A DNA stretch of 64,000 bases from the IMG/VR virus record IMGVR_UViG_3300025030_000876, positions 1 through 64,000 of that record. One strand, given 5' to 3'. This DNA comes from a virus. The notes below the pieces were generated by a model. It had not been told where the DNA came from, did no database searches, and worked only from the letters and a program-made list of their open reading frames with translations. Made by a program: the position numbers and the translations under genes. Below, piece after piece: positions 1 through 64,000 of this stretch (the first letter of the stretch is position 1; each line of letters starts with the position of its first letter).

Positions 1-308
1 CCCCCCTCGAAGGGACCGGTTACATGTGCCCAACTGGCCGGGTCGTTAGGTGTCTGCGTCTTTTTGAGGTGAATCCCCCATCGGTCATCATCCCCCACCC
101 AGCCATCGTAGAAACAGTACCACCAGCCATCCTCGTAAAAAAGCGAGGTTGTCTGTACCGTGCCGAGGTAGTCCGTGCCGAGGTCTCTCTTTACAACGGG
201 ATTGTTGGAATACCGCTGGAACTGTGGGTCCGGCACATCGATAACTGTCGGTGTCCCTGTCCCGGAAACCTGGAATGAGTCCAGAGTCGATAAATCAATC
301 AGCGCCAT
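1..308 (-). CDS. Receptor-binding or fibre protein, N-terminal part (runs off left edge)
   Basis: The first 102 codons of a late gene are present; the reading frame is still open at base 1. It starts at the ATG whose first base is 308, two bases after the stop of the upstream fibre gene. The protein has an aromatic, Asp/Gly-rich pattern (WWYCFYDGWVGDDDRWGIHL) like the blades of GH32/GH43-type five-bladed propellers, so a carbohydrate-binding or cleaving propeller is inferred. GC content is near 65 percent in places, clearly above the rest of the window. On a circular map it would continue into the leftward frame entering at base 64000, giving one propeller-lectin-repeat fibre. Confidence 0.7.
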   Translation of the reverse strand, partial: MALIDLSTLDSFQVSGTGTPTVIDVPDPQFQRYSNNPVVKRDLGTDYLGTVQTTSLFYEDGWWYCFYDGWVGDDDRWGIHLKKTQTPNDPASWAHVTGPFEG

Positions 309-310
309 AA

Positions 311-2707
311 TTACTCCAGCACCAGCTTGGGTTTGTTCGTACCCTCGCCCCCGTCGAATGATGCCCAATATATTTGTGCAGGAGTACTGTTCTGGAAGTC
401 GTGGGCATACTCCCGCACGCAGATTTTAAGCGTTCCACCACTCCCTCGGAGCGCATTGACTGCATCCCTCAGCGCCGTTGTAGAGATATCGTAATACTGA
501 TTGAGCGTTGTGATTGTGGCTGTTTGCCCAATACTCGTGCCGTTCGGGGCTGACGGAAAGCTGTCGAAATCTGCCGTAGTGGGGGGTAGGGCATGTGTCG
601 AAGTCTGAATCCCCGCGACTGGCGAACCTGCGGATTGCACGGCGTACAGCGAGAGAGTGGCCGTGGTTATGTTCGCCCCAGCCGGGATGGTAAAGTCGAT
701 AAACGTTCTGTCTGTCAGATAATAGGTATCGTAGGGTTCTTCTTCCTCTTCCTCTAATGACGCTGCAATATTGATTGTCCCTCCAGTTGCAAATTCCGCT
801 CCACCGGTAGTAGCGCTACGGATAGTAGCAAACGATGAGGCATGGGTTGCTTCAATGTAGCCGTCAGTCGTGTTGGCGTAGATAGTTTCAGAACCGCCAG
901 TCTGTGTACTATTATTAACAACAACCGCACCCGAGATAGTAGCAAGATCATTACCAACAACATCCTCAGTACCATCAGTAGGCTGGGTATAGCTAATAGT
1001 AGGCACGTCAGCATCCATGACAGTAGCAGCAGTGCTATAAACCAGCGTATTACTATTTGCCCCACTCACATACGTTAGAGCATTAGTCGGGCTATTAAGT
1101 GTCCATCCACCATTGCCGCCAGCACCAAACTTAACTACCTCGTCAAATACCAAAGTAACCTGAGTTCCAGCAGTATTAACCGTAGCAGATTGCAACGTAG
1201 GCGCAGCAGTATCAGGAGTGGCAGACGATACAGCCGTTGCCACAGAACTTCCAGAACTATTACGTGCAACCAAGCAAGAGTTTACTTGAGTCCCGCCAGT
1301 AAATCCGCTGATAGCTGCATCTTTGGTAACACCAGAGTGCAATGTGCCGTTAGCCATAATCTCAGCCGCAGTATCATCACTGGGGTCTACGCTAGTATAA
1401 AGGTCATAAGCGCTAGCACCATTGGCATTAGTCCAAGTAGGTATAATAGTCCCACTCCCAGCAGTAATACTAAATGCAGTAGGCGCAGGAGGAATTAACT
1501 GTACAAGGAAGTTGCTACTTTGGGAACTAGTCCCGCCCAAAGAATCTTTGGCCGCCACAGTCCAGTTAGCGTTGCTGCCCGCGGTTTGCGAAGTCACATC
1601 AGCATACAATGTGCTAAATTCAGTAGTCCCATCTGGGTATCTAGCGCCATCTTTGTAGACAAGATAAGTTATTGGAGTATTACCTTCAGGGTCAGTGGAT
1701 GCTTCCCAATTTAACCTGAATCCAGTTCCACCGGCTAAATAGTTAGTCGCAGTAAACAATGCATAATTAGGAACACTAGGCACTTGATTCTCAGCAGTGA
1801 TGGTGTAAGCATCACTAACAACATTTCCAGCGTTCCCAGCCAAGTCCCTAGCAAAGTGTTTAATAGTCGCAGTTTCTGTAACACTAATCGCGCCAGAGTA
1901 AACTTGCGTAGTCCCAGCAACAGGATACACCGGAGTAGTTCCATCAGTTGTGTAGTAAATATCCACAACAGTTTCATCCGCAGAAATCGTGACAGATTGA
2001 GTACCACCATAAGTCCCTGCTACCGGGCTTGCTGTAGTAACCGGCAACGTGAGGTCAATGCTCCAAGTGTACGAAGTAGCAGAAGTCTCTTGCTGCCAGT
2101 TACCACCAGAGTCTTTACCGATGACTTCAAGAATGTGCATACCGGCGGAAAGACTCGAAAGTTGGATATGAATAGAAACAGCAGTCTCGCTACCCCAAGC
2201 CCCAGCATCAATCCGGTACTTATAGGCCACAACGTCCGTCCCGCTTACAGTAACATCCGTAGATTGGGAATTAGTAATCGTTGCAGGAGTACCACTGAGA
2301 ATCGCAACAACATTTGCAACTCCAATGTCGGCCACATCATAGGCATTTACAGTCGGGATTATACCTCTGACTTCGTCAGCAATTACTCCCCAGGGAGTAT
2401 CAAACTTCGCAGCCATCCATACTTTGCCATTGGCGAGTACATATGCTGCGCCATAGTAAGTTGCTGAACCTGTAAAAGTCCATTCTTGGGTAGCATAGTC
2501 AAACCGGACAATACCACTTTGAACAGACGCAACCCAAGATACTTGGGTAAGAGTCTTAGCATCTGCGCCATTACCACTAGCAAACGTAAAATCCGCAGCT
2601 ACAGATGTTTTTACTGGAGTGAAGTTATTAGTAAACAACCTCAACTGAAGATTATCAGGAGGTAGCCTAGTAGCTTCACCTTCATTTACCAATACCCACT
2701 GTGCCAT
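311..2707 (-). CDS. Tail fibre with Ig/FN3-like domains
   Basis: A 798-residue extracellular-type protein rich in Thr, Ser, Ala and Val with no catalytic motif seen. In order: an N-terminal fibre segment (about 1-140), an Ig-like domain (about 145-215), a chitobiase C-terminal-like Ig domain with IYYTTDGTTP (about 225-305), two FN3-like domains (about 310-495), a SwmB-like domain (APTLQSATVNTAGTQVTLVF, about 500-600) and a C-terminal beta domain of DNRLRE type (FIDFTIPAGANITTATLSLY). A run of six Glu precedes the last domain, and DNA from there to the end of the gene is GC-richer. The domain set suggests adhesion to host surface polysaccharide; the function is inferred. Confidence 0.75.
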   Translation of the reverse strand: MAQWVLVNEGEATRLPPDNLQLRLFTNNFTPVKTSVAADFTFASGNGADAKTLTQVSWVASVQSGIVRFDYATQEWTFTGSATYYGAAYVLANGKVWMAAKFDTPWGVIADEVRGIIPTVNAYDVADIGVANVVAILSGTPATITNSQSTDVTVSGTDVVAYKYRIDAGAWGSETAVSIHIQLSSLSAGMHILEVIGKDSGGNWQQETSATSYTWSIDLTLPVTTASPVAGTYGGTQSVTISADETVVDIYYTTDGTTPVYPVAGTTQVYSGAISVTETATIKHFARDLAGNAGNVVSDAYTITAENQVPSVPNYALFTATNYLAGGTGFRLNWEASTDPEGNTPITYLVYKDGARYPDGTTEFSTLYADVTSQTAGSNANWTVAAKDSLGGTSSQSSNFLVQLIPPAPTAFSITAGSGTIIPTWTNANGASAYDLYTSVDPSDDTAAEIMANGTLHSGVTKDAAISGFTGGTQVNSCLVARNSSGSSVATAVSSATPDTAAPTLQSATVNTAGTQVTLVFDEVVKFGAGGNGGWTLNSPTNALTYVSGANSNTLVYSTAATVMDADVPTISYTQPTDGTEDVVGNDLATISGAVVVNNSTQTGGSETIYANTTDGYIEATHASSFATIRSATTGGAEFATGGTINIAASLEEEEEEPYDTYYLTDRTFIDFTIPAGANITTATLSLYAVQSAGSPVAGIQTSTHALPPTTADFDSFPSAPNGTSIGQTATITTLNQYYDISTTALRDAVNALRGSGGTLKICVREYAHDFQNSTPAQIYWASFDGGEGTNKPKLVLE

Positions 2708-4378: not shown

Positions 4379-5452
4379 TTAAACCATTAATTCGCCACTA
4401 ACGTCTAACAACGGAATAAGTGCGTAGCCATAAATTATATTACTTTTCCCAACAACCTCAATCCTAACCTTTGGGGAAACATCCCCAGGGTCAACATTAC
4501 CTCGATAGTATGCTATGGTGTCATTACCATCAAATCCAGTAGTTAATGTTGTGATTGTTTTACCTGAGTCAAAATAGCCATTCCCTTCTTCACAGAAAGC
4601 ATATAATGTATAACTTCCTGTTATATTTTCCCCATACTGATCTTTGGCTAGAATTGCAATAGTCGCCGGATTACCGAGCCAAGCCAATGGGGTATCAATG
4701 TCTTTATCACAAGTAACCACTATGCTACTAATAACCGCCGCATACCATATTGCATTTATCATATCCGCCCTAACTTCTGTTGCGCTAGAAGTAAACAAAA
4801 TATGACAAAGCTTAACATGGCTGGAAGGAACAGCTGGTAACGTTGGGTTGGAAGTTACTTCTGAACTACTAATAACATCTACAAGCCCATCAATTCCAAT
4901 AACAAGCAAGTCATATCTTACTTTCCCAGTAGCCGGAGCAGTGAATTCAATAACATCAATATCCCCGCCCATTAAGGTGTCATCACCCATTGTCATGTCA
5001 CTATCAGCAAGCATAGTAACACCAGCAACAGAGTAAACAACACCATTAATACGGTAAGTTCCAGAAGCTATTGTTACTTTCATCTCTCCCGGTATCGGGT
5101 AAACTTGAAGCCCAGTAACAATAGTATCAACAGAAGAAACTCCTGGTAATGCTTCAACTCCATTTGGGAATGTTGGGATATTCATACCATGACCAACAAT
5201 CTCAAACAAAGTCCTATTACCACCCCTATGAGCAATCCTTACAGCATTACCAGGTTTTAAATACTGTGGCGTGCTTTCCCAATTCTCAGGATACCTTGCA
5301 TACAAAGGCAAGTTAGACCCTTGGATTCTTACTTTGCACTTTCTCAGGTCTTCATAAACCTCATACACAATAGCATCCCTAGTCTCTGACATACTAGATG
5401 CCACTCGTTGCATGTTCTTTCTAAGAAATCTTTTTTGCATTAGTGGATTCAT
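4379..5452 (-). CDS. Tail tip or baseplate structural protein
   Basis: 357 residues from the ATG at 5452. That ATG overlaps the stop codon of the hub gene (TAATG) and has a GGTGGAG Shine-Dalgarno sequence. A GTG four codons upstream is possible but lies inside the SD. Residues about 20-95 look like a small OB-type barrel (VRIQGSNLPLYARYPENW, NAVRIAHRGGNRTLFEIVGHG) as in tail-tip and baseplate proteins. The C-terminal 90 residues resemble an Ig/bacterial invasin-like domain (AKDQYGENITGSYTLYAF). Position directly after the hub suggests a connector between the tail tip and the fibres; this is inference. Confidence 0.6.
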   Translation of the reverse strand: MNPLMQKRFLRKNMQRVASSMSETRDAIVYEVYEDLRKCKVRIQGSNLPLYARYPENWESTPQYLKPGNAVRIAHRGGNRTLFEIVGHGMNIPTFPNGVEALPGVSSVDTIVTGLQVYPIPGEMKVTIASGTYRINGVVYSVAGVTMLADSDMTMGDDTLMGGDIDVIEFTAPATGKVRYDLLVIGIDGLVDVISSSEVTSNPTLPAVPSSHVKLCHILFTSSATEVRADMINAIWYAAVISSIVVTCDKDIDTPLAWLGNPATIAILAKDQYGENITGSYTLYAFCEEGNGYFDSGKTITTLTTGFDGNDTIAYYRGNVDPGDVSPKVRIEVVGKSNIIYGYALIPLLDVSGELMV

Positions 5453-8400
5453 TAAATTCTCCACCCTTCTATTTTGTCAATAACTTTAGGTTCTTTACCA
5501 AGCTCCCAAGTACGCTCAATCTCGCTAATAAATATTTTCATTACTTGCCCAGAGTAAGGGTGCGGGATTTGAATTGTATCCCCTTCTTCGTCTTGGAAAT
5601 GTGCAATCTTCTCAAGTTGAACTCGCTTGCGTTGCAATTTCTTGAGCATGATAAGAAACTCAGCAAAAACTCTACAATCCCCGACAGTATAACAAGCAAA
5701 CCCTTCAACTTTCTCAGCAATGATTTTACCAATCTCAATCTGGAATTCTTCATCATTGGCTGTGTATTCTACTGACCTTCTAGCATACCCAAGTGGTTGT
5801 GCCCAGATTTCATATTGGAAGTTGCACATACTGCCAAGAATTGTAAGCGCGATATAAAGCCCAGTACCTTCAATATACCTACCCCAAGGATAAGTGAGTT
5901 TACCAGTCGCAGGGTCTACAATATCCCCAATCTTATTCCCAGCAAAGTAAGTAGCAATAGCAGCGGTTAACTGCGGAATCAAATTAGGCACATCAACAGT
6001 GACAGTACAAAACTTCTCAAAACTATCAACTTCGCTGATAGATTCATCAACTTCACCAGCAAGAAAGAAACCCATCCCCGAAGCAGACTCAAGTACCTCC
6101 AACCTCGGATATCTACATCTCCTACTCCTATCCTCCGAGTAATAAACATCAAAATCCTTCTTCATTCCCCACCAGCCTGCAGTACCACTAAGCGAAGCTA
6201 CTCTTTCTTCAGGAAACAATATCTCAATATCATCCTGTTCTTCCCCGGTAACAGTAACTCTATTAACCATATCCGAGTAACTATCATCCGGTGAATATCC
6301 AATCATTGCTTTCTTATCAGTATACGTATGATTCACTGAATTGTCTATTGCAATCTTTCTGGTAATAAACTTATCATCAGTAGTCATTGTAGAGAAATGC
6401 CCATACCGATTACAGATAATAGGAATCATATCACTAAGTTTAGTATCCGCCCATTGAGCATCAATTAAGTTAGGCCCAGTGAAATTAATAGTAATATCCC
6501 CAGAAGCTATCCCGCCAAGATTCTCAACTAAATCAGCCAAAATAGCTTCAGGATATTGGCCCTGATAGCTCACAACAACTTGTTCATCATCATCCCAGAA
6601 GGTTCTAATATCCTGCGCGGTAATAGATATTGTAGGATACTGGCTTATTCTGAAACTCAACGCAGTCTCAGTAACATAAAAAGTCCCTTGGGCAGCCCAA
6701 TAATCAACCCCAGATACTTTTTCCCCTGCTTTAAATACTAACTTCCTTCCTTTCTTTACATATTTATTAAACAACGAAAGCAAGTTAGATGGGTCAAACA
6801 AGTACCCATGAGATAACTTAAACTGAAGTTCATGAGGCGAACCATCCACGGCTACTTTACGTGAAATACTATCAACTAAGTACTCTGTAACATCAAACTG
6901 AGGTTCAATACTATCCCAAGCAAGGTAATACTTTGTATTGTTGGATTTATCCTTTTGCCAAAAAGCCCATACTTTATTATCTTCATCAATCCCAACCCAA
7001 GCATTAAAATCAGAAATACCATTAATCAATTTAGCAGAAGTACTAAATTCCCAATCGGTATCTTTTGCTCCTATTTTGTACATTGTTTGTTTGAATTTAC
7101 CATCCCTAAGAAATGTAGTAATTCCAAGATAACTGTAAGATGCAGCAAAATACCGATCATTTGCTTGGTCATATAATGCCCACCATAAATTATCTGTATT
7201 ATTTGGTGTAATTCCCGGTATTTCATCATTACTTTTCCTATCAAACGTTTCTGTTAATGTATTAAAAATAACAACACCGTCAGAACTTGTACCTATTAGT
7301 ATTTCATCAAGTTCCGGGACAAGAGTTAAAGAATTAAATCCATAATCATTAGCAGTCTTATATGGGGGGATAGCAAAATGAACATAACTAGATGCAACAT
7401 CAATAATACACAATCCTTTTTGGGTATCATAACCACTAGAAGCGTAATAAGTAAAAATGCCATATATTTTATTATTATGAAGTACAAAATCACCTAATGA
7501 GTTTCTAGGAAGCCCCCCATCAGGGTTAGCATTTAATCTAAAAGATTCTGCTCCCGCAGCCAAATCCCAACAACGTAAAGCAGCATCGCCTTCAATACCA
7601 TCAATCTGACTAAACCAATATTCATTACCATAAATACGTCGCTGTAAAAGATTTGACCCAAAAACATCACTCATTGTATAAAAATCAGCAGAGACATTAA
7701 ATGTATATTCTGGTCCAGTGTCATTTAAATCAAGATAACCAACAACGGAATAGCCACTTGTCCCTCCACTCATACGACCATAAGCCATTATCCAAACATG
7801 GTTATTAACTTCGTCATATTCATGATATGCTTCAGCAAAAGCTCTGTTAGAGGGCCAACCAACGACATTTTGTGCAGTTTCTGTGGCTGTATGCGTTGTG
7901 AAATTAAAACTCCGCATAACATCAGTTTCAGCTTCCCATACACAGATATGTGGTAATGTACCAACAATTACTTTATTTCCAACCATAGCCCGTTTGTAAC
8001 ACTCATCATATCTACTAGATACATATTGAATAACGGCAGGCACAGCCGGGGTTGTTATATAATTCCTAGTTTTAGTAATAGTCCATGTGGCAATGTCAAT
8101 TTCAAAAATTCCTTGTAAATGGGTATACACATAACCAGATTCAGCCACCACAGCATATAATTTCTGGTTAACAGAATCCAGCATAATATAGGAAACAAAA
8201 TCATAACCACTATCACCACCCTGCTGTGGAGGCCAACCTGTGGTACTTTCGCCTATGAATAAAGCACCAGACTCTTCTGTAAAAGCAAGATACATTGAAT
8301 CTGCATCAGTTTGAACAGCAGAAGGGTAATATCCGATTTTAGTGAAATCAGTATAATTTGTGACTTTAACCGTAGTTCCCCACGTAGCCCCGTTATCTGT

Positions 8401-46007: not shown

Positions 46008-46463
46008 ATGAATATGAATTCCGCGTATATAACCAAGCACCAAGGAATAATTACAAGGCTCTGCTACAGTCGTGCTTTGCCACCTAACATTGCTATTCAA
46101 AGCAATATTGAAACCTATATTGAACCTGTATTGGAAGAAATGATATACAAACTATCTGTATATCTAGCTGCGAAACAACACAAGAAAACAGATACAAAAA
46201 CTATAGAAGAAGTAATAGATATCATAAAAATTCCTTCCTCTTGGTGGCAGCATTTTAAACGGGAATACGCACCTGAATGGTTCACAAATAGATGGCCGGT
46301 TAAAGTCTACGAACATCCTTTGAGAGTGTTACGTAAAACCACAACCATCACAGAGATAACAAATATATGCCCACATACTTTGGTAGATAAAGAACGAACT
46401 CATTTTGAGTTTTTGTTATTTAGCAAAGATAGTGAATATCCAGGGGTTAGGAGGCCTAAGTGA
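46008..46463 (+). CDS. Early protein of unknown function
   Basis: 151 residues, rich in Lys/Ile/Trp with SSWWQHFKREYAPEWFTNRW in the middle; this Trp-rich segment followed by HPLRVLRKTTTIT resembles proteins seen upstream of other phage metabolic genes. RBS GGGAGGATAAG. Overlaps the glycosyltransferase start by 4 bp, so it is coupled to it. Function unknown. Confidence 0.58.
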   Translation: MNMNSAYITKHQGIITRLCYSRALPPNIAIQSNIETYIEPVLEEMIYKLSVYLAAKQHKKTDTKTIEEVIDIIKIPSSWWQHFKREYAPEWFTNRWPVKVYEHPLRVLRKTTTITEITNICPHTLVDKERTHFEFLLFSKDSEYPGVRRPK

Positions 46464-48496
46464 AAATCTCTTGTTGTATGATAGTTAAGGATGAAGAAAA
46501 GAATATCAAACGTGCGTTAACTTCTATTTCAGGTAAGGTGGATGAAATCATTGTTATTGACACAGGAAGCACAGATAAGACAACGAGAGAAATTATTGCT
46601 TTTATGAAACATTATGGCCGCGAAAATATCATTGTCAATGATTTTGTTTGGATTGATGACTTTGCAGCGGCAAGGAATTACTCCAAGCGGTTTGCAACTG
46701 GCGATTTCATCTTCTTCATGGACGCAGATGAAGAGTTTATTGGTGAAATGCCAGAACTAACCAAACAAGCATTCTACACCATAACCATACAAAACCATAC
46801 AGACGCCGGAGTTCCTATGACTTCTGTCCCTGTGCGCTTCGCGCCTAACATTCCAGAAGTATCTTTCAAAGGCAGAGTTCATGAGCAGTTTGCATCAACA
46901 ATCCCGCTTGAAGTAATATCTATCAATGATTGTTACTTGAATCATTATGGATATCTTGGAGAAGCTAGAGAAGCCAAAGACAAACGCACTCGCAACGTAA
47001 CCTTGCTCGAAGCCGAACTTACTGAGAATCCAACTCCGGATTTGTGTTATTACCTTGGCCAGGAATACTACGGCCTCGGTAAATTCCAAGAAGCTCTGGA
47101 ACTCTCAGACAAAGGAATTGCATTAATCTCTGAAGATAAATCCTACGCTGCAACTTTGTATAACCTCCAGGTTGTTTGTCTCATTGAACTTGGTTGCAGA
47201 AGTGAACTCACTGCTTTTGCTGACCACTACGCTGATGAATACGAACACCCTGAAACCTATCTCGCTCTTGCTTCTTACTTTGCTTCTGTAGCCGACGAAG
47301 GCAGAATGCTTCGGTGTGCATTCAACTGCCTCAAGTTCCACAACGCTGGAGTTCTACCAGTTCGCTACGCAGAATCCTCCATCAAACTCATGCCTTACAA
47401 AATCCTCGGAGAATACTATGAATCCAGAGACAAGTTGCTATCACTGTATTTCTACGAGTATCTGCTGGGGGCAGGATGCACCGAAGTCGAACTCTATACA
47501 AAACTCCATTCCCTCCTCCCAAAAACCTACCGAACAACCCCTAAGTGGGAATACTACGCAACAAAATGTTACGAGCTGACGAATCATCCTGGGTACTTCA
47601 AGAGCATTGCAAATGCTTACCTTAACACCACTGACTCGGAAAAACACGAAGAAGCCATGAAGATGATTGACCAAGTAGCGAATCCTCTTGAGAGAATCCA
47701 GATTAGGGACAATTTGGAATCTAATGGCAAGCAACATCTTGCAGTTATGCTTACTAGGCCAATGCAATATACTATACCAACTCTGGCCTCAACAAAAGCT
47801 TCTATTAGCATTATCATCCCAACAATGCTAAAAGCCTCAGCAGATTATTTTGAGTATAACTTGAAACTCCTTGAAGAATGCCCTTTGGTAGATGAAGTTA
47901 TCATCATCAACAACAGTAATGAAATATTCCCATACTATTGCTCTAAAGCAATCATTTATGAGCTTGGTAAAAACATCGGAGTAAACCCAGCTTGGAATCT
48001 TGGGATGCAAGGAGCAAAGGGTGATTATTATCTGCTACTAAATGATGACTGTTTAATCAACGAGCAAGTTCTTTGGGATTGTGTTTCTGCCCATAAGTGG
48101 ATTGAAGACGCTGGAGTTATTGGATGTTTTACTAAGCACGAATCTCTTGAGCAATATATAAGTAAGACAGCACTATATACTCAGACCACTGCTATCGAAT
48201 ACAACTTTGAAGAACACAAAGCATTTTCTCTTGGGTGGTTTATTTTTGGAAAGACTTCTGATTGGGTTCCTATTCCAGAAGAACTTGTTTATTTTTATGG
48301 CGACGATTTCATACATCACAAACAACTTGTAGCGGGAAGAACGAATCTGGTTATCACTTCTAATTACATTTCACACGCTGTTAGCACGACTGTAAACGCG
48401 CTTGATTTGTACCGCAAAGGCTTATTGCAATCAGAAGGAACTATCTACCAAAGAATCCTGGAGGAAGAGAATGGTAATTTTATTCACAGTGCTTAA
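46460..48496 (+). CDS. Two-domain glycosyltransferase with TPR-like middle
   Basis: 678 residues from GTG 46460. The N-terminal GT2 (GT-A) domain starts with MKISCCMIVKDEEKNIKRAL, has IDTGSTDKT (about 34-42) and the metal-binding DAD at 88-90 (FFMDADEE). A helical repeat region follows (about 185-420; LCYYLGQEYYGLGKFQEALE is TPR-like). A second GT2-like domain starts near 447 (ISIIIPTM) with LLLNDDC near 525. It could glycosylate phage DNA, a virion protein or host surface sugars. The adjacent methyltransferase suggests a sugar modification path. Confidence 0.8.
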   Translation: MKISCCMIVKDEEKNIKRALTSISGKVDEIIVIDTGSTDKTTREIIAFMKHYGRENIIVNDFVWIDDFAAARNYSKRFATGDFIFFMDADEEFIGEMPELTKQAFYTITIQNHTDAGVPMTSVPVRFAPNIPEVSFKGRVHEQFASTIPLEVISINDCYLNHYGYLGEAREAKDKRTRNVTLLEAELTENPTPDLCYYLGQEYYGLGKFQEALELSDKGIALISEDKSYAATLYNLQVVCLIELGCRSELTAFADHYADEYEHPETYLALASYFASVADEGRMLRCAFNCLKFHNAGVLPVRYAESSIKLMPYKILGEYYESRDKLLSLYFYEYLLGAGCTEVELYTKLHSLLPKTYRTTPKWEYYATKCYELTNHPGYFKSIANAYLNTTDSEKHEEAMKMIDQVANPLERIQIRDNLESNGKQHLAVMLTRPMQYTIPTLASTKASISIIIPTMLKASADYFEYNLKLLEECPLVDEVIIINNSNEIFPYYCSKAIIYELGKNIGVNPAWNLGMQGAKGDYYLLLNDDCLINEQVLWDCVSAHKWIEDAGVIGCFTKHESLEQYISKTALYTQTTAIEYNFEEHKAFSLGWFIFGKTSDWVPIPEELVYFYGDDFIHHKQLVAGRTNLVITSNYISHAVSTTVNALDLYRKGLLQSEGTIYQRILEEENGNFIHSA

Positions 48497-56553: not shown

Positions 56554-56749
56554 ATGGCTAGAAGATTCCCATGATTGTGAAACTTGCGGATATTCGTATT
56601 CCTATGGGGCTAAAGTAACTTTAGACGATGTAGTTATCCTAGATGACTTCGAGAAAGCTCATTGTTACGGTGGCTCGGATGTAACTCCTGAAGATATCCT
56701 TAAAGCTCTTTGCAAACATCTCAATATTGAAATCCGGGAGATTTATTAA
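56537..56749 (+). CDS. Small protein before NrdJ
   Basis: 70 residues from ATG 56537 (GAGGAGCC upstream): CETCGYSYSYGAKVTLDDVV then DVTPEDILKALCKHLNIEI. One CxxC. Its stop overlaps the NrdJ start (TAATG), so it is translationally coupled to the reductase. Function unknown; possibly a reductant or partner. Confidence 0.6.
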   Translation: MKLVIKWLEDSHDCETCGYSYSYGAKVTLDDVVILDDFEKAHCYGGSDVTPEDILKALCKHLNIEIREIY

Positions 56750-59700
56750 TGAAGTTAACTGACCGTGCTGAAACAGTTGCTAAGCTCCGAATCTTTGCAA
56801 AAGATGCTACTGGCAACTGTATCGAAGATTTCGATGGAATGTGCCATAGGGTTGCAAAGCATCTTGCAAATTCCGAAGAAGAAGAAAAAGACTTATTCTG
56901 GGTGATGAATAATCTTTTGTTTTTGCCTAATAGTCCTTGCTTGGTAAATGCAGGAGCTAAAGGACGTAAGAATCAACTCAGTGCTTGCTTTGTTTTAAGC
57001 GTAGAAGATTCTATCGAAGACATCTATGACACCATCAAAGAAACCGCATTGATTCACAAAACCGGCGGAGGTACGGGTTTCAATTTTAGTAAAATCCGCC
57101 CGAAAGATTCCAACGTAGCCTCAACTGGTGGCGTTGCTTCTGGCCCGGTTAGTTTCATGAAAGTCTTTGATGCTTCCACGGATGGCATCAAGCAAGGCGG
57201 AGTTCGTAGGGGTGCGAATATGGGAGTTCTCCGTGTTGACCATCCTGATATCCTAGACTTTGTTAATTGTAAACGCGGGAAGAATGCACTACAGAACTTT
57301 AACATCTCAGTAGCAATCACTGATGAATTCATGGAAGCTAAGCTCAAAGGTAATGAGTTTACTTTGGTTAATCCCAAAACCAAAGAGAAGACTTCTATCA
57401 GTGCTAAGACCATCTGGGATGCGATAGTAGATAACGCTTGGAATTCAGCAGACCCAGGTGTACTGTTTATCGACCGAATCAACGAGCACAATCCCCTGAC
57501 CGGAGTTAGTAGTATAATCGAAGCTACTAATCCTTGTGTTTCTGGAGATACCTTAGTATTAACTGATAATGGATACATTCGCATTGATGAGCTTGTTGGT
57601 AAACCAGTTAATATTTGGAATGGTTATAGATTTTCTAAAGTTACTCCGCAGATAACAGGAACAAACCAGAAGATGGTAACTGTGGAGCTAAGCGATGGTA
57701 ACAAACTCACATGCACAGAATATCATAAATTCATTGCTTGGAAAGGAACTGTCGCAGCCAAGGATTTGCAAATTGGGGATAAATTAATCAAATGGAATTA
57801 TCCGGTAATTGAGGGCAATACTACGCTGCCAAGGTCTTATGCTTACACTACGGGTTTCTTTTGTGGAGATGGTTCGCAAGAAACTACTAGAGACAGGAAT
57901 TCTATCTGGCTTTATGGAGACAAAATAGCTTTGTTGGACCATTTGGAATACGCTACGTACAATGAATGCGCAAATGACCGGTTGTTTGTTAAGATGCGTC
58001 CTAGCGTGTTTGATAAACAATTTGTACCAGACACTAATTATTCAATACAAACCAGGTTAGATTATCTGGCTGGGCTAATTGATTCTGATGGTACTCTCAA
58101 CGACAAAGGAGGAAGTATAGCTCTTTGGTCTAATGATAATACCTTCATTACCAAAGTAAAATACATGCTCCATACTCTTGGCATTAATTGTTCAGTATCT
58201 ATCGGCACTTCTGGTGGAAGTAAATCAATGCCTAATGGCAAAGGAGGGCATAAAGAATATAATACTCAGGATTGTTTTCGGCTGGTAATAAGTGCTTACA
58301 ATGTGATGAAGTTACGTGAATTAGGCTTGGCTACAAATAGAGTGGCTGTAGATGCCAAACCTAATAGAAGCTCGGCCAGAGCAATATATGTAAAATCTGT
58401 CGAAACTTCTGGTATCGCTGATGTTGTTTATTGTTTTACTGAGCCATTTAATCATACTGGTGTGTTTAATGGTATGATGACAGGGCAGTGCGGAGAACAA
58501 CCATTAGCGCCTGGAGAAGCATGCGGGCTTGGAAGCATCAATCTAGCAGAAGTTATCAAAGACTACGGCATCGACTACGACAAACTAAAAAAGATAACTC
58601 GTATTGGCGTTTTGCTTCTCAATCGCATGATGACTAAGAGCGAATACCCTAACAAGAAGATAGCTGAACGCGTTAACGCTTCTCGTAAAATCGGCCTCGG
58701 CGTAATGGGTTTCGCTGACATGCTTATCAAGATGCGTATCCCGTATACTTCCCAAGACGCTCAAGAAGTTGCAGGGAACATTGCTCAGTGCATCTTGGAT
58801 ACTTGTGTTAAAGCAACCCACGAGCTAGGAACCAAAGAAGGCGTGTTTCCTTTGTTCAAATCAGAATACAAAATGCCGGGACATATTAAGGAATCTCTCA
58901 AGAGACTGAAGATTAAGCCTAGCGATTACAAACCGGCAAATAGCACACTTACAACCATCGCGCCAACAGGAACGCTTAGCATCATTGCTAATTGCTCCAG
59001 CGGGATTGAACCTATTTTTCATTTTGAACAAACAGAACGTAGAGTTGATATGGAGATTGTCCATACCCATCCTTTGTATGCAGCCTATAAAGAAAAGTTC
59101 CCTAAATGTGACATGCCACATTACTTTCAAGAACTTGCCGATATCGACGTAGATACACATGTCTATATCCAAGCAACATTCCAGAAGTATATTTGCAGCG
59201 GGGTTAGTAAAACAGCAAATCTTCCTCATGACGCAACAAAACAAGACGTTGAGAAAGTCTACCGTGAAGCGTTTATTCTTGGCTGTAAAGGAGTGACCGT
59301 CTACCGTGATGGTTGCTTGGAGAATCAAGTAATCTCAGGGAAGGATTCTAAAGGCTTTACCATTGCAACAGAAATCCTACCAGAACCTAGGCCCGAAGCA
59401 CTTAGCGGTATCACCTATGAAATCAAGACTGGCTTTGGGCCGATGTTGGTAACGGTGAATTATAAAGATGGGAAGCCATTTGAAGTCATCTGCCAACTAG
59501 GTAAAAGCGGCGCGAGTGAAGCAGCTAAGGCAGAAGCGATTAGTAGGCTTTGTAGTATACTACTGCGTTGTAATGTACCTCCAAAAGTCATTGTGGAACA
59601 ACTTGAAGGGATTGTTGGCAGCGAAAGCATCCATACCAAATACGGACTTGTTACTTCCATCCCTGATGCTCTTAGTAAAATCATGATTAATCATGTGCTT

Positions 59701-59832
59701 ACTAAGGAAGAATATAACCCGACCATTCCAACCATGATAAAATGCCCAGACTGCGGAAAGTTCAATACCATGATTAAAGAAGGTAGTTGCTCCACTTGCC
59801 AGAACTGTGGCTTCAAGTCATGTGGAGGCTAA
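56749..59832 (+). CDS. nrdJ: Adenosylcobalamin-dependent ribonucleotide reductase (class II) with intein
   Basis: 1027 residues before splicing and 709 after removal of a 318-residue intein (residues 263-580). NrdJ features: FLPNSPCLVNAG and QLSACFVLSVEDS near the N-terminus, GGGTGFNFSKIRP, ATNP-CGE around the radical site, APTGTLSIIANCSSGIEP, VTVYRDGC, and a C-terminal Cys-rich tail (CPDCGKFN...CQNCGFKSCGG). It makes dNTP precursors with B12 and needs no oxygen or separate radical subunit. The extein joins at Cys263/581, the catalytic thiyl radical cysteine. Confidence 0.93.
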   Translation: MKLTDRAETVAKLRIFAKDATGNCIEDFDGMCHRVAKHLANSEEEEKDLFWVMNNLLFLPNSPCLVNAGAKGRKNQLSACFVLSVEDSIEDIYDTIKETALIHKTGGGTGFNFSKIRPKDSNVASTGGVASGPVSFMKVFDASTDGIKQGGVRRGANMGVLRVDHPDILDFVNCKRGKNALQNFNISVAITDEFMEAKLKGNEFTLVNPKTKEKTSISAKTIWDAIVDNAWNSADPGVLFIDRINEHNPLTGVSSIIEATNPCVSGDTLVLTDNGYIRIDELVGKPVNIWNGYRFSKVTPQITGTNQKMVTVELSDGNKLTCTEYHKFIAWKGTVAAKDLQIGDKLIKWNYPVIEGNTTLPRSYAYTTGFFCGDGSQETTRDRNSIWLYGDKIALLDHLEYATYNECANDRLFVKMRPSVFDKQFVPDTNYSIQTRLDYLAGLIDSDGTLNDKGGSIALWSNDNTFITKVKYMLHTLGINCSVSIGTSGGSKSMPNGKGGHKEYNTQDCFRLVISAYNVMKLRELGLATNRVAVDAKPNRSSARAIYVKSVETSGIADVVYCFTEPFNHTGVFNGMMTGQCGEQPLAPGEACGLGSINLAEVIKDYGIDYDKLKKITRIGVLLLNRMMTKSEYPNKKIAERVNASRKIGLGVMGFADMLIKMRIPYTSQDAQEVAGNIAQCILDTCVKATHELGTKEGVFPLFKSEYKMPGHIKESLKRLKIKPSDYKPANSTLTTIAPTGTLSIIANCSSGIEPIFHFEQTERRVDMEIVHTHPLYAAYKEKFPKCDMPHYFQELADIDVDTHVYIQATFQKYICSGVSKTANLPHDATKQDVEKVYREAFILGCKGVTVYRDGCLENQVISGKDSKGFTIATEILPEPRPEALSGITYEIKTGFGPMLVTVNYKDGKPFEVICQLGKSGASEAAKAEAISRLCSILLRCNVPPKVIVEQLEGIVGSESIHTKYGLVTSIPDALSKIMINHVLTKEEYNPTIPTMIKCPDCGKFNTMIKEGSCSTCQNCGFKSCGG
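57535..58488 (+). mobile_element. LAGLIDADG intein within NrdJ
   Basis: 318 residues. Block A starts CVSGDTLVLTDNGYIRIDEL, block B has TCTEYHKF, and the endonuclease motifs are FFCGDGSQ and LAGLIDSDGT. Block F is EPFNHTGVFNG, and the end is MMTGQ followed by Cys+1. The last intein residue is Gln rather than Asn, and the penultimate residue is Gly rather than His. It sits in NPCGE, the most conserved site of the enzyme, as is typical of inteins. Confidence 0.92.
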
Positions 59833-61631: not shown

Positions 61632-62009
61632 CTATGCAATCTTAACTGGAAAGAAGTAATAAGTATTCTTTGCACCAGAGGCCAAGGTAAGTTCAAATGC
61701 CAGAGTCATGCTAGCACCTTTGTACCCAATTCCTGGGTATTTAAATTTGCACAAAACATAATCCGTAGAAGTCTGGATGGTGTAATCCTCATCCACCACA
61801 TAAGAAGAAATATCAACCACAGCAGTTAAGTCAGACGTAGGGATTATTTCCCCTACATAAGCCTTAACCACTGCAGATTGAATATTATCCCCTTGCGGCA
61901 GAGTACCATCATTCCCGGCAGAAGTAGCTTGGGGAAACAGAAACTTATACGGTCCCCAGTTATCCATTCCTGCTCTAAGTTCAATGCTCGCCCCAAGAAA
62001 ATCCATCAT
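61632..62009 (-). CDS. Virion-associated protein of unknown function
   Basis: 125 residues from the ATG pair at 62009/62006 (AAGGAGCAGT upstream); the longer frame starts inside the previous gene's end. Beta-rich (VVKAYVGEIIPTSDLTAVVD; ASMTLAFELTLASGAKNTYY). It follows the 158-residue virion protein by a few bases. Probably a fibre or baseplate accessory. Confidence 0.6.
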   Translation of the reverse strand: MMDFLGASIELRAGMDNWGPYKFLFPQATSAGNDGTLPQGDNIQSAVVKAYVGEIIPTSDLTAVVDISSYVVDEDYTIQTSTDYVLCKFKYPGIGYKGASMTLAFELTLASGAKNTYYFFPVKIA

Positions 62010-62017
62010 ACTGCTCC

Positions 62018-62494
62018 TTATGCGTATTCCCATTTGATAGTAGCGGTATCAGCGGAAGTATTAGCCGCGCCAGCATTAACTACCCGCTTAAACCAAATCC
62101 GATAACCTTGACCTGCAGGAATATCAGGCACAGACATTCTGCTGGAGGTGTTATAAGTAGCAAATACAATCGCGGCAGGAGCGGTAGATTCATTAGCCAC
62201 AGACAAAGAACTCTCAAGTGCATTAGGCCCGAGGTCAAGCCGAGTATCCGCGCTTGAAGTATCAGGGTCCAGGTAAACAGTTACCGAAGTAGCCGCTGCA
62301 TCCCCTGAATTGTACAAATCCAACGCCCGGTACTCAGTATCCCCTGCAGCAGATTCCACTGCACTCACATCATCAAACAAGTTATTCAACGGAGTAGAAC
62401 TCAAAGCCACTGAACTTCTAACTCCTCCCAACGAAGCATTTGCATTGCTGTTGCTCGCCCCACCAGTGTATCTCAGTTCCAACGTCGCTGCCAT
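62018..62494 (-). CDS. Virion-associated beta-rich protein
   Basis: 158 residues, Ala/Ser/Asn/Thr-rich, with a pattern common in phage structural genes (LELRYTGGASNSNANASLGG at the start; SVPDIPAGQGYRIWFKRVVN at the end). Acidic, no Cys. RBS AAGGAGATAAGA. Lies downstream of the repeat-containing fibre and is probably part of its adhesin module. Confidence 0.65.
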   Translation of the reverse strand: MAATLELRYTGGASNSNANASLGGVRSSVALSSTPLNNLFDDVSAVESAAGDTEYRALDLYNSGDAAATSVTVYLDPDTSSADTRLDLGPNALESSLSVANESTAPAAIVFATYNTSSRMSVPDIPAGQGYRIWFKRVVNAGAANTSADTATIKWEYA

Positions 62495-62505: not shown

Positions 62506-64000
62506 TTACTTGGTTTTTGCCAGAATCACAAATGTTCTGGTTTTGGTGTTAAACAACATGGTATGGGTTTTTGTAGTGAAAGTCTCTAAAGGACTAACTG
62601 CAATAACTGTAGAAATAACCGCCCAAGCTGACTGCGCTTCTTCTTTGCTGAGAATCTTCCAGTTACTATCTTTACTTACTGTTTTAAATATCTTCCAAGA
62701 AGTAGACGCTGACAGATTACTTAGTGCAAAAACCTTCCATTCAGAATCTTCATTCCCAGAAGCAAACAATTTCCAAGCACTTGCTTTCTCTATCCCTACT
62801 TGGATTTTCCAAGAAGTATCTATTGCTTCAAGTCCTGCGACAAATATCACCCAAGCAGAATCTTGGGTTTGTTCTTTGTAAATCTTCCACTCAGCAGATT
62901 CGCTTAACTCTGCAAACAATTTCCAAGCAGAGTCTTTGGTGTTTTCTTTAAACAACTTCCAACTAGAAACTTTATTCAGATTCTTAAACAGTTTCCAACT
63001 GGTTTGTTTGCTGACTGGTTTGAAAACTCGCCAACTAGCAATCTTGCTCAACCCAGTTGCAATCTTCCAAGCAGTATTTACTGCAACCGTGCTTCCAACA
63101 AGTACTTGCCAATTGGTGTTAATACTTGGATTTTTAAATAATTTCCAGGTTGTTTGTTTTGCTATACCGAGTTTAACTTTCCACGTGGCTTGTCTATTTG
63201 TGCTTTTAAATAACTTCCAGACGGTGTTTTTAGTCAATCCCTTGCGGAGTTTCCATGCTGTATCCTTAGTAATAGCCTTAAATAATTTCCAACTGACATT
63301 GTGTGCAAAAACCTTAACCATTTTCCATGCAACAGATTGTTCATTATAGGCTGGGATAGCAAGCTTCCCGCCGGTTGCATATCCGCCTATAAATGTAACT
63401 GGTGGGTTTATTATACCAAGCGGTGCTTCTGCAAACTCAATCTGTGTGATATAGCCATCCATTTTTGTCGTGAGTTGCACAGCCGTGGCAGGGCCAGTGA
63501 AGTTGGCAATTCTGTTGCCCATGTAAAAGGCAACAAAACTTGCCCCATCTCGGACAAAAGTGAATTCTATGGGTTTAATTTCTGCATTGAAATTAAAGGT
63601 AGTCGTAGTGACAACCCCGTTCTTATTAAATTTGAGATAGGGTGAAGAACTGCCAAATTCAAAAGCATATGTATTGACTCCATCTGTAATGCCTGCCATG
63701 AAGCCGCTCGCCTGACCAAGCATGGCCGTAACCTGCACAGCCAGCATTCCCTCAGTGAACTCATCTTCCAGCGTCAGCGTCTGTGCTATAGTACATTCGA
63801 TTGCATGTCCCCAATTGAAGGGCCAGGTTGCCGAAGCAAGCCCAACATCGCGGTGCATCTGTGCATCATAAGGCCAGACGTTATCCCAGCCATTGGCTAA
63901 AACCGGCTCGGTGAAGTTGCGGGTTGGAGCCAATGACCTTCCATCATAGGCAAGGTGCGCCTCCCCATCCTTAATGGCAAGATTGGACGGAACCCCAATG
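62506..64000 (-). CDS. Receptor-binding fibre with lectin-like domain and 12-residue Trp repeats (runs in from right edge)
   Basis: 498 codons, open at base 64000, so the true start is outside the window; an apparent TTG at 63933 is not the start. The first part (PSNLAIKDGEAHLAYDGRSL) looks like the end of a propeller. A concanavalin-like domain follows (about 63.4-63.9 kb). Next come twenty units of W-K-[LIV]-F-K type with a 12-residue period (62590-63327), then a short beta tail. GC content falls sharply where the repeats begin. On a circular map this is the continuation of the gene at 1-308. Confidence 0.75.
   Translation of the reverse strand, partial: IGVPSNLAIKDGEAHLAYDGRSLAPTRNFTEPVLANGWDNVWPYDAQMHRDVGLASATWPFNWGHAIECTIAQTLTLEDEFTEGMLAVQVTAMLGQASGFMAGITDGVNTYAFEFGSSSPYLKFNKNGVVTTTTFNFNAEIKPIEFTFVRDGASFVAFYMGNRIANFTGPATAVQLTTKMDGYITQIEFAEAPLGIINPPVTFIGGYATGGKLAIPAYNEQSVAWKMVKVFAHNVSWKLFKAITKDTAWKLRKGLTKNTVWKLFKSTNRQATWKVKLGIAKQTTWKLFKNPSINTNWQVLVGSTVAVNTAWKIATGLSKIASWRVFKPVSKQTSWKLFKNLNKVSSWKLFKENTKDSAWKLFAELSESAEWKIYKEQTQDSAWVIFVAGLEAIDTSWKIQVGIEKASAWKLFASGNEDSEWKVFALSNLSASTSWKIFKTVSKDSNWKILSKEEAQSAWAVISTVIAVSPLETFTTKTHTMLFNTKTRTFVILAKTK
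62590..63327 (-). repeat. Twenty tandem 12-residue (36-nt) Trp-Lys repeats
   Basis: Units start at a conserved Trp: consensus W-K-L-F-K-x-x-x-K-x-(T/S)-x. Three units have two extra residues, so the 246 codons are exactly 17 x 12 plus 3 x 14. The DNA copies are diverged, so expansion is not recent. Predicted to form a regular beta stack or solenoid shaft. Confidence 0.82.

What the first reader, a model, noticed from the sequence alone, without database searches (positions are those of the whole stretch)
62590..63327. Twenty 12-residue Trp-Lys repeats in a receptor-binding fibre
The repeats have a strict period (17 units of 12, three of 14 residues) with an invariant Trp in all twenty units. 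The pattern does not match collagen, beta-helix hexapeptides or other repeats I know in phage fibres. The alternating WKLFK pattern suggests a new beta-solenoid or stacked shaft with a Trp ladder.
Basis: seen in the sequence. Interest (0 to 1): 0.7.

Follow-up and report, generated by a model that had tools for sequence, protein, structure and literature searches.

The report
Trp-repeat phage fibre with conserved partner
A bacterial virus protein carries twenty 12-residue tryptophan repeats behind a sugar-binding-type head; the same repeat occurs in many other phages and mostly sits beside one conserved small partner gene, so it looks like an uncatalogued, portable virus-surface fibre module.

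Summary
The repeat is real: twenty Trp at spacings of 16x12 and 3x14, far beyond chance. It is not unique. DNA-pattern scans found 16 further loci with the same 12-residue unit, [ST][AS]W[KR][ILV][FLY]; spacing is almost only 12 or 14. No Pfam, NCBIfam, PHROGs or PDB family describes it; two relatives pass Pfam's MgtE_N cut-off, which I read as coincidence.

The main find lies outside the given coordinates. The next gene (62018-62494, 158 aa, a predicted beta-sandwich) is conserved beside the repeat gene. Starting from that partner alone, 25 of its 30 closest relatives lie beside a Trp-repeat gene, and two more beside a 12-residue repeat that has largely lost its Trp. So Trp is not essential, which weakens the 'Trp ladder'. 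N-terminal domains vary or are nearly absent; array, C-terminal tail and partner are the constant core. In one phage the array is fused to baseplate protein Tail_P2_I.

Best reading: a virion fibre cassette with one short beta-strand per unit, anchored by its C-terminal side and partner, presenting interchangeable glycan-binding heads. A bolder reading is that each unit is a donor strand for one partner copy. AlphaFold2 of the array is low-confidence (pLDDT 44), so its fold is open.

The parts
62506..63999 (-). Trp-repeat protein gene, the part inside the window's last 1.5 kb (497 aa + stop); continues to 64675 of the record and, if circular, into window 308-1
1..308 (-). Probable N-terminal 102 codons of the same gene (ATG at 308), in frame across the record ends
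   Evidence: inference that the record is circular
63415..63927 (-). Jelly-roll / concanavalin-like region before the repeats (reading from sequence; no profile match)
   Evidence: sequence; no hit
62590..63333 (-). Array of twenty units, 12 residues each, three of 14
62509..62592 (-). C-terminal tail with a motif of the type F....R.F.F....RTF.(I/F), shared with relatives
62018..62494 (-). Partner gene, 158 aa, predicted beta-sandwich (phrog_13135, unknown function)
61632..62033 (-). Third small gene of the cassette, 133 aa; relatives in the same place in L582 and L570; another ~100-aa family stands there in five other loci
311..2707 (-). Upstream tail-type gene, 798 aa, with CHB_HEX_C_1 and Fn3_assoc domains; its stop lies 2 bases before the ATG at 308

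Best explanation
This is a virion fibre cassette. The N-terminal part (probable five-bladed propeller plus jelly-roll) is an exchangeable head that binds, and perhaps trims, host-surface glycans. The twenty 12-residue units are a rigid beta-repeat stalk in which each unit gives one strand of about seven residues (-2 to +4 around Trp) and one turn. The 14-residue units are a special variant (W.IL..G.LS..TAW). The C-terminal tail, together with the 158-aa beta-sandwich partner and usually a third small protein, joins the stalk to the particle. Shown: the repeat family, its linkage to the partner, variable or absent N-terminal domains, fusion to a baseplate protein in one relative, a low-confidence strand per unit. 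Inferred: direction (head at the N-terminus, anchor at the C-terminus), direct contact of array and partner, glycan binding.
For: Partner homologue found in 14 of 16 loci chosen only by the Trp DNA pattern; the other two loci end short, and their contigs have it. In the reverse direction, 25 of the 30 closest partner loci carry the repeat on the same strand beside it, 12 of them on contigs not found before; a bacterial-genome locus repeats this (L609). N-terminal parts differ: DUF2341 (L204), choice-of-anchor Q (L420), nearly none (L586, L587, L592). L569: the array is fused to Tail_P2_I (E 5.5e-10), with Baseplate_J upstream and the partner between. Spacings in 14 array loci: 173 of 12, 23 of 14, 2 of 13, 1 of 11; insertion by two keeps a strand's in/out pattern. 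AF2 gives one strand in nearly every unit. Shared C-terminal tail.
Against: AF2 of the array is poor (mean pLDDT 44, pTM 0.37, 12 rows), so neither fold nor order is established. No virion proteome or binding data. Gene position is not constant: last tail-side gene here, between portal and prohead protease in L574, after the large terminase in L582. The cassette could therefore sit on the tail, neck or capsid. No Pfam or PDB hit for the N-terminal domains of this protein. In 4 of the 25 linked loci the repeat gene lies downstream, not upstream, of the partner.
Confidence: 0.47

Rival explanations
1. Donor-strand string: each 12-residue unit is a short beta-strand that completes or docks on one copy of the 158-aa partner, so one repeat protein displays or is clad by many partner subunits.
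For: Strong linkage in either gene order. The partner is a confident beta-sandwich (pLDDT 83.7) whose nearest solved folds include TasA and type 1 pilins, which use donor strands (the mechanism is recalled). Both loci whose repeats lost most Trp have Phe at partner position 151, which is G/A/T/C/I in all 24 Trp-type partners of the same alignment and in L344, L447 (A, G) and L609 (C).
Against: Fold matches are weak: best Z 7.9, TM about 0.3, within the noise the tool warns of. The Phe-151 link was found after looking at all columns (1 in 406 by my arithmetic for this column, not significant over 158), the two loci are 69% identical, and L595 has Phe without any repeat. A new scan gave no further Trp-less loci to test it. 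Strict 12/14 spacing is not required by a flexible string.
Confidence: 0.22
2. Fibre plus downstream chaperone: the partner is not in the particle but folds or trimerises the repeat protein.
For: Small gene directly after a fibre-type gene in 21 of 25 linked loci; such chaperones are common after phage fibre genes (recalled).
Against: Distant partner relatives stand without any annotated fibre-repeat gene directly beside them, between neck and terminase genes, in KVP40-like phages and before the portal gene in a podovirus; in 4 of 25 the order is reversed.
Confidence: 0.13
3. Alpha-helical superhelix of MgtE_N type, one short helix per 12 residues.
For: Pfam MgtE_N passes its cut-off (25.9 bits) in L163 (27.1) and L566 (32.3) and scores below it in five more array proteins, the given one included at 13.4.
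Against: Only 2 of 20 array proteins scanned pass. Asn/Thr dominate position +4, T/V/I/W are frequent, and 12/14 spacing has no helical logic; AF2 shows strands, no helix.
Confidence: 0.06
4. Largely disordered linker with periodic Trp 'stickers'.
For: AF2 pLDDT below 50 over 242 of 277 residues.
Against: Strict period, conserved hydrophobic +2 and +3 positions, conserved 14-residue variant, low alignment depth.
Confidence: 0.08

Closest known systems
Phage tail-fibre / tailspike proteins with repetitive shafts
   Same: Exchangeable receptor-type domains on a repetitive stalk, small partner genes beside them, fusion to a baseplate protein in L569
   Different: 12-residue Trp-Lys/Arg unit not in Pfam, NCBIfam, PHROGs or PDB by sequence; variable domain at the N-terminus; closely linked beta-sandwich partner
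Pfam MgtE_N (PF03448)
   Same: About 12-residue periodicity (recalled); two relatives exceed the cut-off
   Different: Helical domain of a magnesium channel (recalled); the given protein scores 13.4 bits against 25.9; composition and spacing point to beta
Chaperone-usher pilins (FimA/FimG) and TasA
   Same: Among the best fold neighbours of the partner; would supply a precedent for donor-strand assembly
   Different: Weak matches, no convincing sequence similarity, no usher or signal context seen
Insect 12-residue beta-helical antifreeze proteins (Tenebrio type; recalled, search listing only)
   Same: 12-residue unit forming one beta-strand per coil
   Different: Those are Cys/Thr repeats with disulphides (recalled); no sequence relation
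phrog_13135 and KVP40.0353-type proteins
   Same: Relatives of the partner (KVP40 type 28-33% identity)
   Different: No Trp-repeat gene annotated beside the KVP40-type ones in the regions read

Membership tests
MgtE_N (PF03448) | Score at or above Pfam's gathering cut-off | tested here: not met
   Given protein 13.4 bits against 25.9; 2 of 20 array proteins pass
MgtE_N (PF03448) | All-helical superhelix | tested here: inconclusive
   AF2 shows strands but at pLDDT 44
Collagen-like fibre repeats | Gly-X-Y triplets | tested here: not met
   Sequence of the array
Donor-strand-assembled fibres | Subunit with an incomplete Ig fold | tested here: inconclusive
   Partner is a predicted beta-sandwich; pilin/TasA neighbours at Z below 8
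Donor-strand-assembled fibres | A strand from another chain fills the fold | not testable with these tools
Phage tail-fibre / receptor-binding proteins | Gene among tail genes next to the lysis region | tested here: inconclusive
   Here after tail-type gene 311-2707 and before a weak XhlA match; in L574 between portal and prohead protease
Phage tail-fibre / receptor-binding proteins | Physical link to a tail protein | tested here: inconclusive
   Seen in one relative only: L569, array fused to Tail_P2_I; not seen in the given protein
Phage tail-fibre / receptor-binding proteins | Binds a host receptor | not testable with these tools
   Needs experiment

The most novel reading that the evidence does not exclude
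A phage builds a multivalent surface filament from two genes: a string protein of 7 to 41 similar 12-residue strands, each of which captures one copy of a small beta-sandwich subunit by donor-strand complementation, like a pilus whose donor strands are all on one scaffold. Repeat number would set filament length, and the Trp/Phe-151 exchange would mark the contact.
Probability: 0.2. Interest if true: 0.85.

Novelty: new variant of a known kind. Interest (0 to 1): 0.55.

Why it matters
It defines an uncatalogued repeat family and a two- to three-gene cassette found in different phages and at different genome positions, with interchangeable N-terminal heads. If the stalk reading holds, it is a plug-in host-recognition unit that could help annotate unknown virion genes. 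If the donor-strand reading holds, it would be a new way to assemble a multivalent filament. Either can be tested with two small, expressible proteins.

Tried and rejected
Sequence searches with the whole protein found nothing usable: tblastn in phages, the search for related loci in viral and genome contigs. The only phage hit with a long match (LR756501) is the opposite strand of a collagen-like gene; H5, the 642-kb phage hit, was fetched but not examined. The broad TGGR period-36 pattern returned mostly the same kind of antisense artefact. Of the 24 frames flagged I dropped six by eye as low-complexity or unrelated (L433, L488, L408, L439, L300, L422), leaving the given protein (listed twice) and 16 other loci. 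The Tunturiibacter phage hit proved to be a protein without the repeat.

Rejected: trivial DNA tandem repeat, collagen, MgtE_N membership. Not pursued: fold search with the array model, since pLDDT 44 makes matches meaningless. The compensation test on partner position 151 got no new Trp-less loci. Bacterial genomes: 6 of 297 and 36 of 398 hold a partner-like match. Most are ~345-aa distant forms, and a crude motif scan of the + strand of 30 loci showed no convincing Trp array. Literature searches gave search listings only and no paper describing this repeat; one search looked for unit strings and its hits look unrelated by title. Foldseek gave no convincing solved relative for the partner; the best viral model match is an uncharacterised protein (A0A8S5MMQ1, E 4e-7, TM 0.72).

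Full report
What was checked. The window's last gene on the minus strand (62506-63999) is open to the window edge. It has twenty Trp at spacings 12,12,12,12,12,12,14,12,12,12,12,12,12,14,12,12,14,12,12. The array beats 20,000 shuffles (16 pairs at distance 12 against a maximum of 8). Lag 12 stands out in self-similarity, with 24 second. The DNA copies are too diverged for Tandem Repeats Finder, so I read this as an old, selected protein repeat, not a recent DNA expansion.

The full gene. The record is 64,675 bases and the frame runs to its end with 722 open residues. A frame at the other end of the record (window 3-368, minus) is open to base 3 and joins exactly in frame. The upstream gene 311-2707 stops two bases before the ATG at 308. 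If the record is circular, the protein has about 825 residues. I read the first ~350 residues as a five-bladed propeller of GH43-like type and the next ~170 as a jelly-roll. That is from sequence pattern only; Pfam and PDB sequence searches gave nothing usable.

Relatives. Ordinary searches failed. DNA patterns for three Trp-Lys-(Ile/Leu/Val) units 36 bases apart and two variants gave loci among which 16, besides the given protein, carry the same array in a long frame (six of the 24 flagged frames dropped, the given protein listed twice). The unit consensus is [TS][AS]W[KR][IVL][LFY]N.....[DN] (173 units; 329 units). Spacings in 14 array loci are 173 of 12, 23 of 14, 2 of 13 and 1 of 11. The 14-residue units share their own motif, W[QRK]IL..G.LS..TAW. 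42 were listed, of which I judge four to lie outside the arrays. Array sizes run from 7 to 41 Trp; some of those loci are cut by contig ends.

The partner. The gene right after the array gene (62018-62494) is conserved at 43-64% identity in 14 of the 16 loci. The two without it, L204 and L363, end short, and other loci of the same contigs have it. To remove the selection on Trp, I searched with the partner alone (43 loci) and scanned the frames around it with a profile of the repeat. 25 of 43 loci have the repeat on the same strand beside the partner, 21 upstream and 4 downstream. Among the 30 loci with tblastn E at or below 1e-25 it is 25 of 30; among the 13 weaker ones, 0 of 13. The five exceptions are one locus without upstream sequence (L568), two without a repeat (L589, L591) and two with a repeat the profile does not see (L578, L582). 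Of the 25, 13 lie on contigs already found by Trp pattern and 12 are new; L575/L576 and L586/L588 carry identical array hits and should each be counted once. A bacterial-genome locus (L609) shows the same pair.

Trp can be lost. L578 and L582 keep a clear 12-residue period (no shuffle in 1000 reaches it) while Trp is mostly replaced, by Tyr/Phe/Leu in L578 and by Ala/Ser/Asn in L582. So the strand-and-turn period is the constant, not Trp. Their partners share Phe at position 151, where the 24 Trp-type partners in the alignment have G, A, T, C or I; L344, L447 and L609 agree. Against this: the column was picked after the fact, the two loci may be related (69% identity; the tree does not resolve them), L595 has Phe without a repeat, and a further scan produced no new Trp-less locus. 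It is a lead.

Structure. AF2 on the array with 11 relatives gives mean pLDDT 44.2, pTM 0.37, with one strand of about 5 to 9 residues in nearly every unit and no helix. That fits the even spacing and the composition but establishes no fold. AF2 on the partner is good (83.7, pTM 0.83): eight strands, a beta-sandwich. Its nearest solved folds include TasA, FimA/FimG and other Ig-like domains, at Z up to 7.9 and TM about 0.3, within the tool's noise range. Sequence profiles of both against the PDB found nothing convincing.

Context. In the given phage the cassette follows a tail-type gene with CHB_HEX_C and Fn3_assoc domains and is followed by a third small gene and a weak XhlA match. In L574 it sits between portal and prohead protease, in L582 after the large terminase, and in L569 next to Baseplate_J with the array fused to Tail_P2_I. 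A third small gene follows the partner: the given phage's has relatives in L582 and L570, and a different family stands there in L566, L574, L580, L587 and L592 (12 loci compared, the other four unmatched). N-terminal domains differ: DUF2341 in L204, choice-of-anchor Q in L420, almost nothing in L586, L587 and L592. The constant core is array plus tail motif plus partner.

Judgement. The core behaves as a portable virion module. I favour a stalk anchored at its C-terminal side that carries exchangeable heads (0.47). The linkage, the beta-sandwich partner and the Phe-151 lead leave room for a donor-strand string (0.22). MgtE_N passes its Pfam cut-off in 2 of 20 array proteins (the 20 include two Trp-poor ones and two pieces of one contig). 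I think this is a coincidence of period and composition, but it is the one described family whose cut-off any relative's repeat passes.

Limits. The partner loci come from one viral collection by degenerate peptide patterns, so counts are of loci, not independent lineages. Functions are inferred from domains and neighbours only. Papers were seen as search listings, none read.

Noticed in passing
window 56749-59832 (+): Ribonucleotide reductase large chain (Ribonuc_red_lgC, E 3e-111) interrupted by an intein-like insert: LAGLIDADG_3 above its cut-off, Intein_splicing below its cut-off.
   Followed up: partly
window 1-308 and record bases 64000-64675: A gene joins in frame across the two record ends, which suggests that the phage record is complete and circular or circularly permuted.
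   Followed up: partly
L628 and similar loci L629-L656: About 345-aa proteins in many bacterial genomes (36 of 398 searched have a match) match part of the partner profile, several copies in some genomes; they look like prophage proteins with an inserted domain.
   Followed up: partly
L560 7001-7396 (KVP40), L562, L563, L564, L565: KVP40-like Vibrio phages carry a lone distant partner relative between the tail sheath stabiliser gene gp15 and the small terminase gene gp16, annotated hypothetical.
   Followed up: partly
L570 and L583 (and L583's upstream frame 5127-5672): Proteins upstream of the partner also carry another short repeat of the type PP..DAVNF.F, suggesting further short-strand repeat families beside this partner.
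   Followed up: no
window 46460-48496 (+): Large glycosyltransferase family 2 protein encoded by the phage.
   Followed up: no
Viral-contig scan, L005-L124: Trp-codon period patterns in viral contigs are dominated by the opposite strand of collagen-like genes, a trap for anyone hunting Trp repeats.
   Followed up: yes
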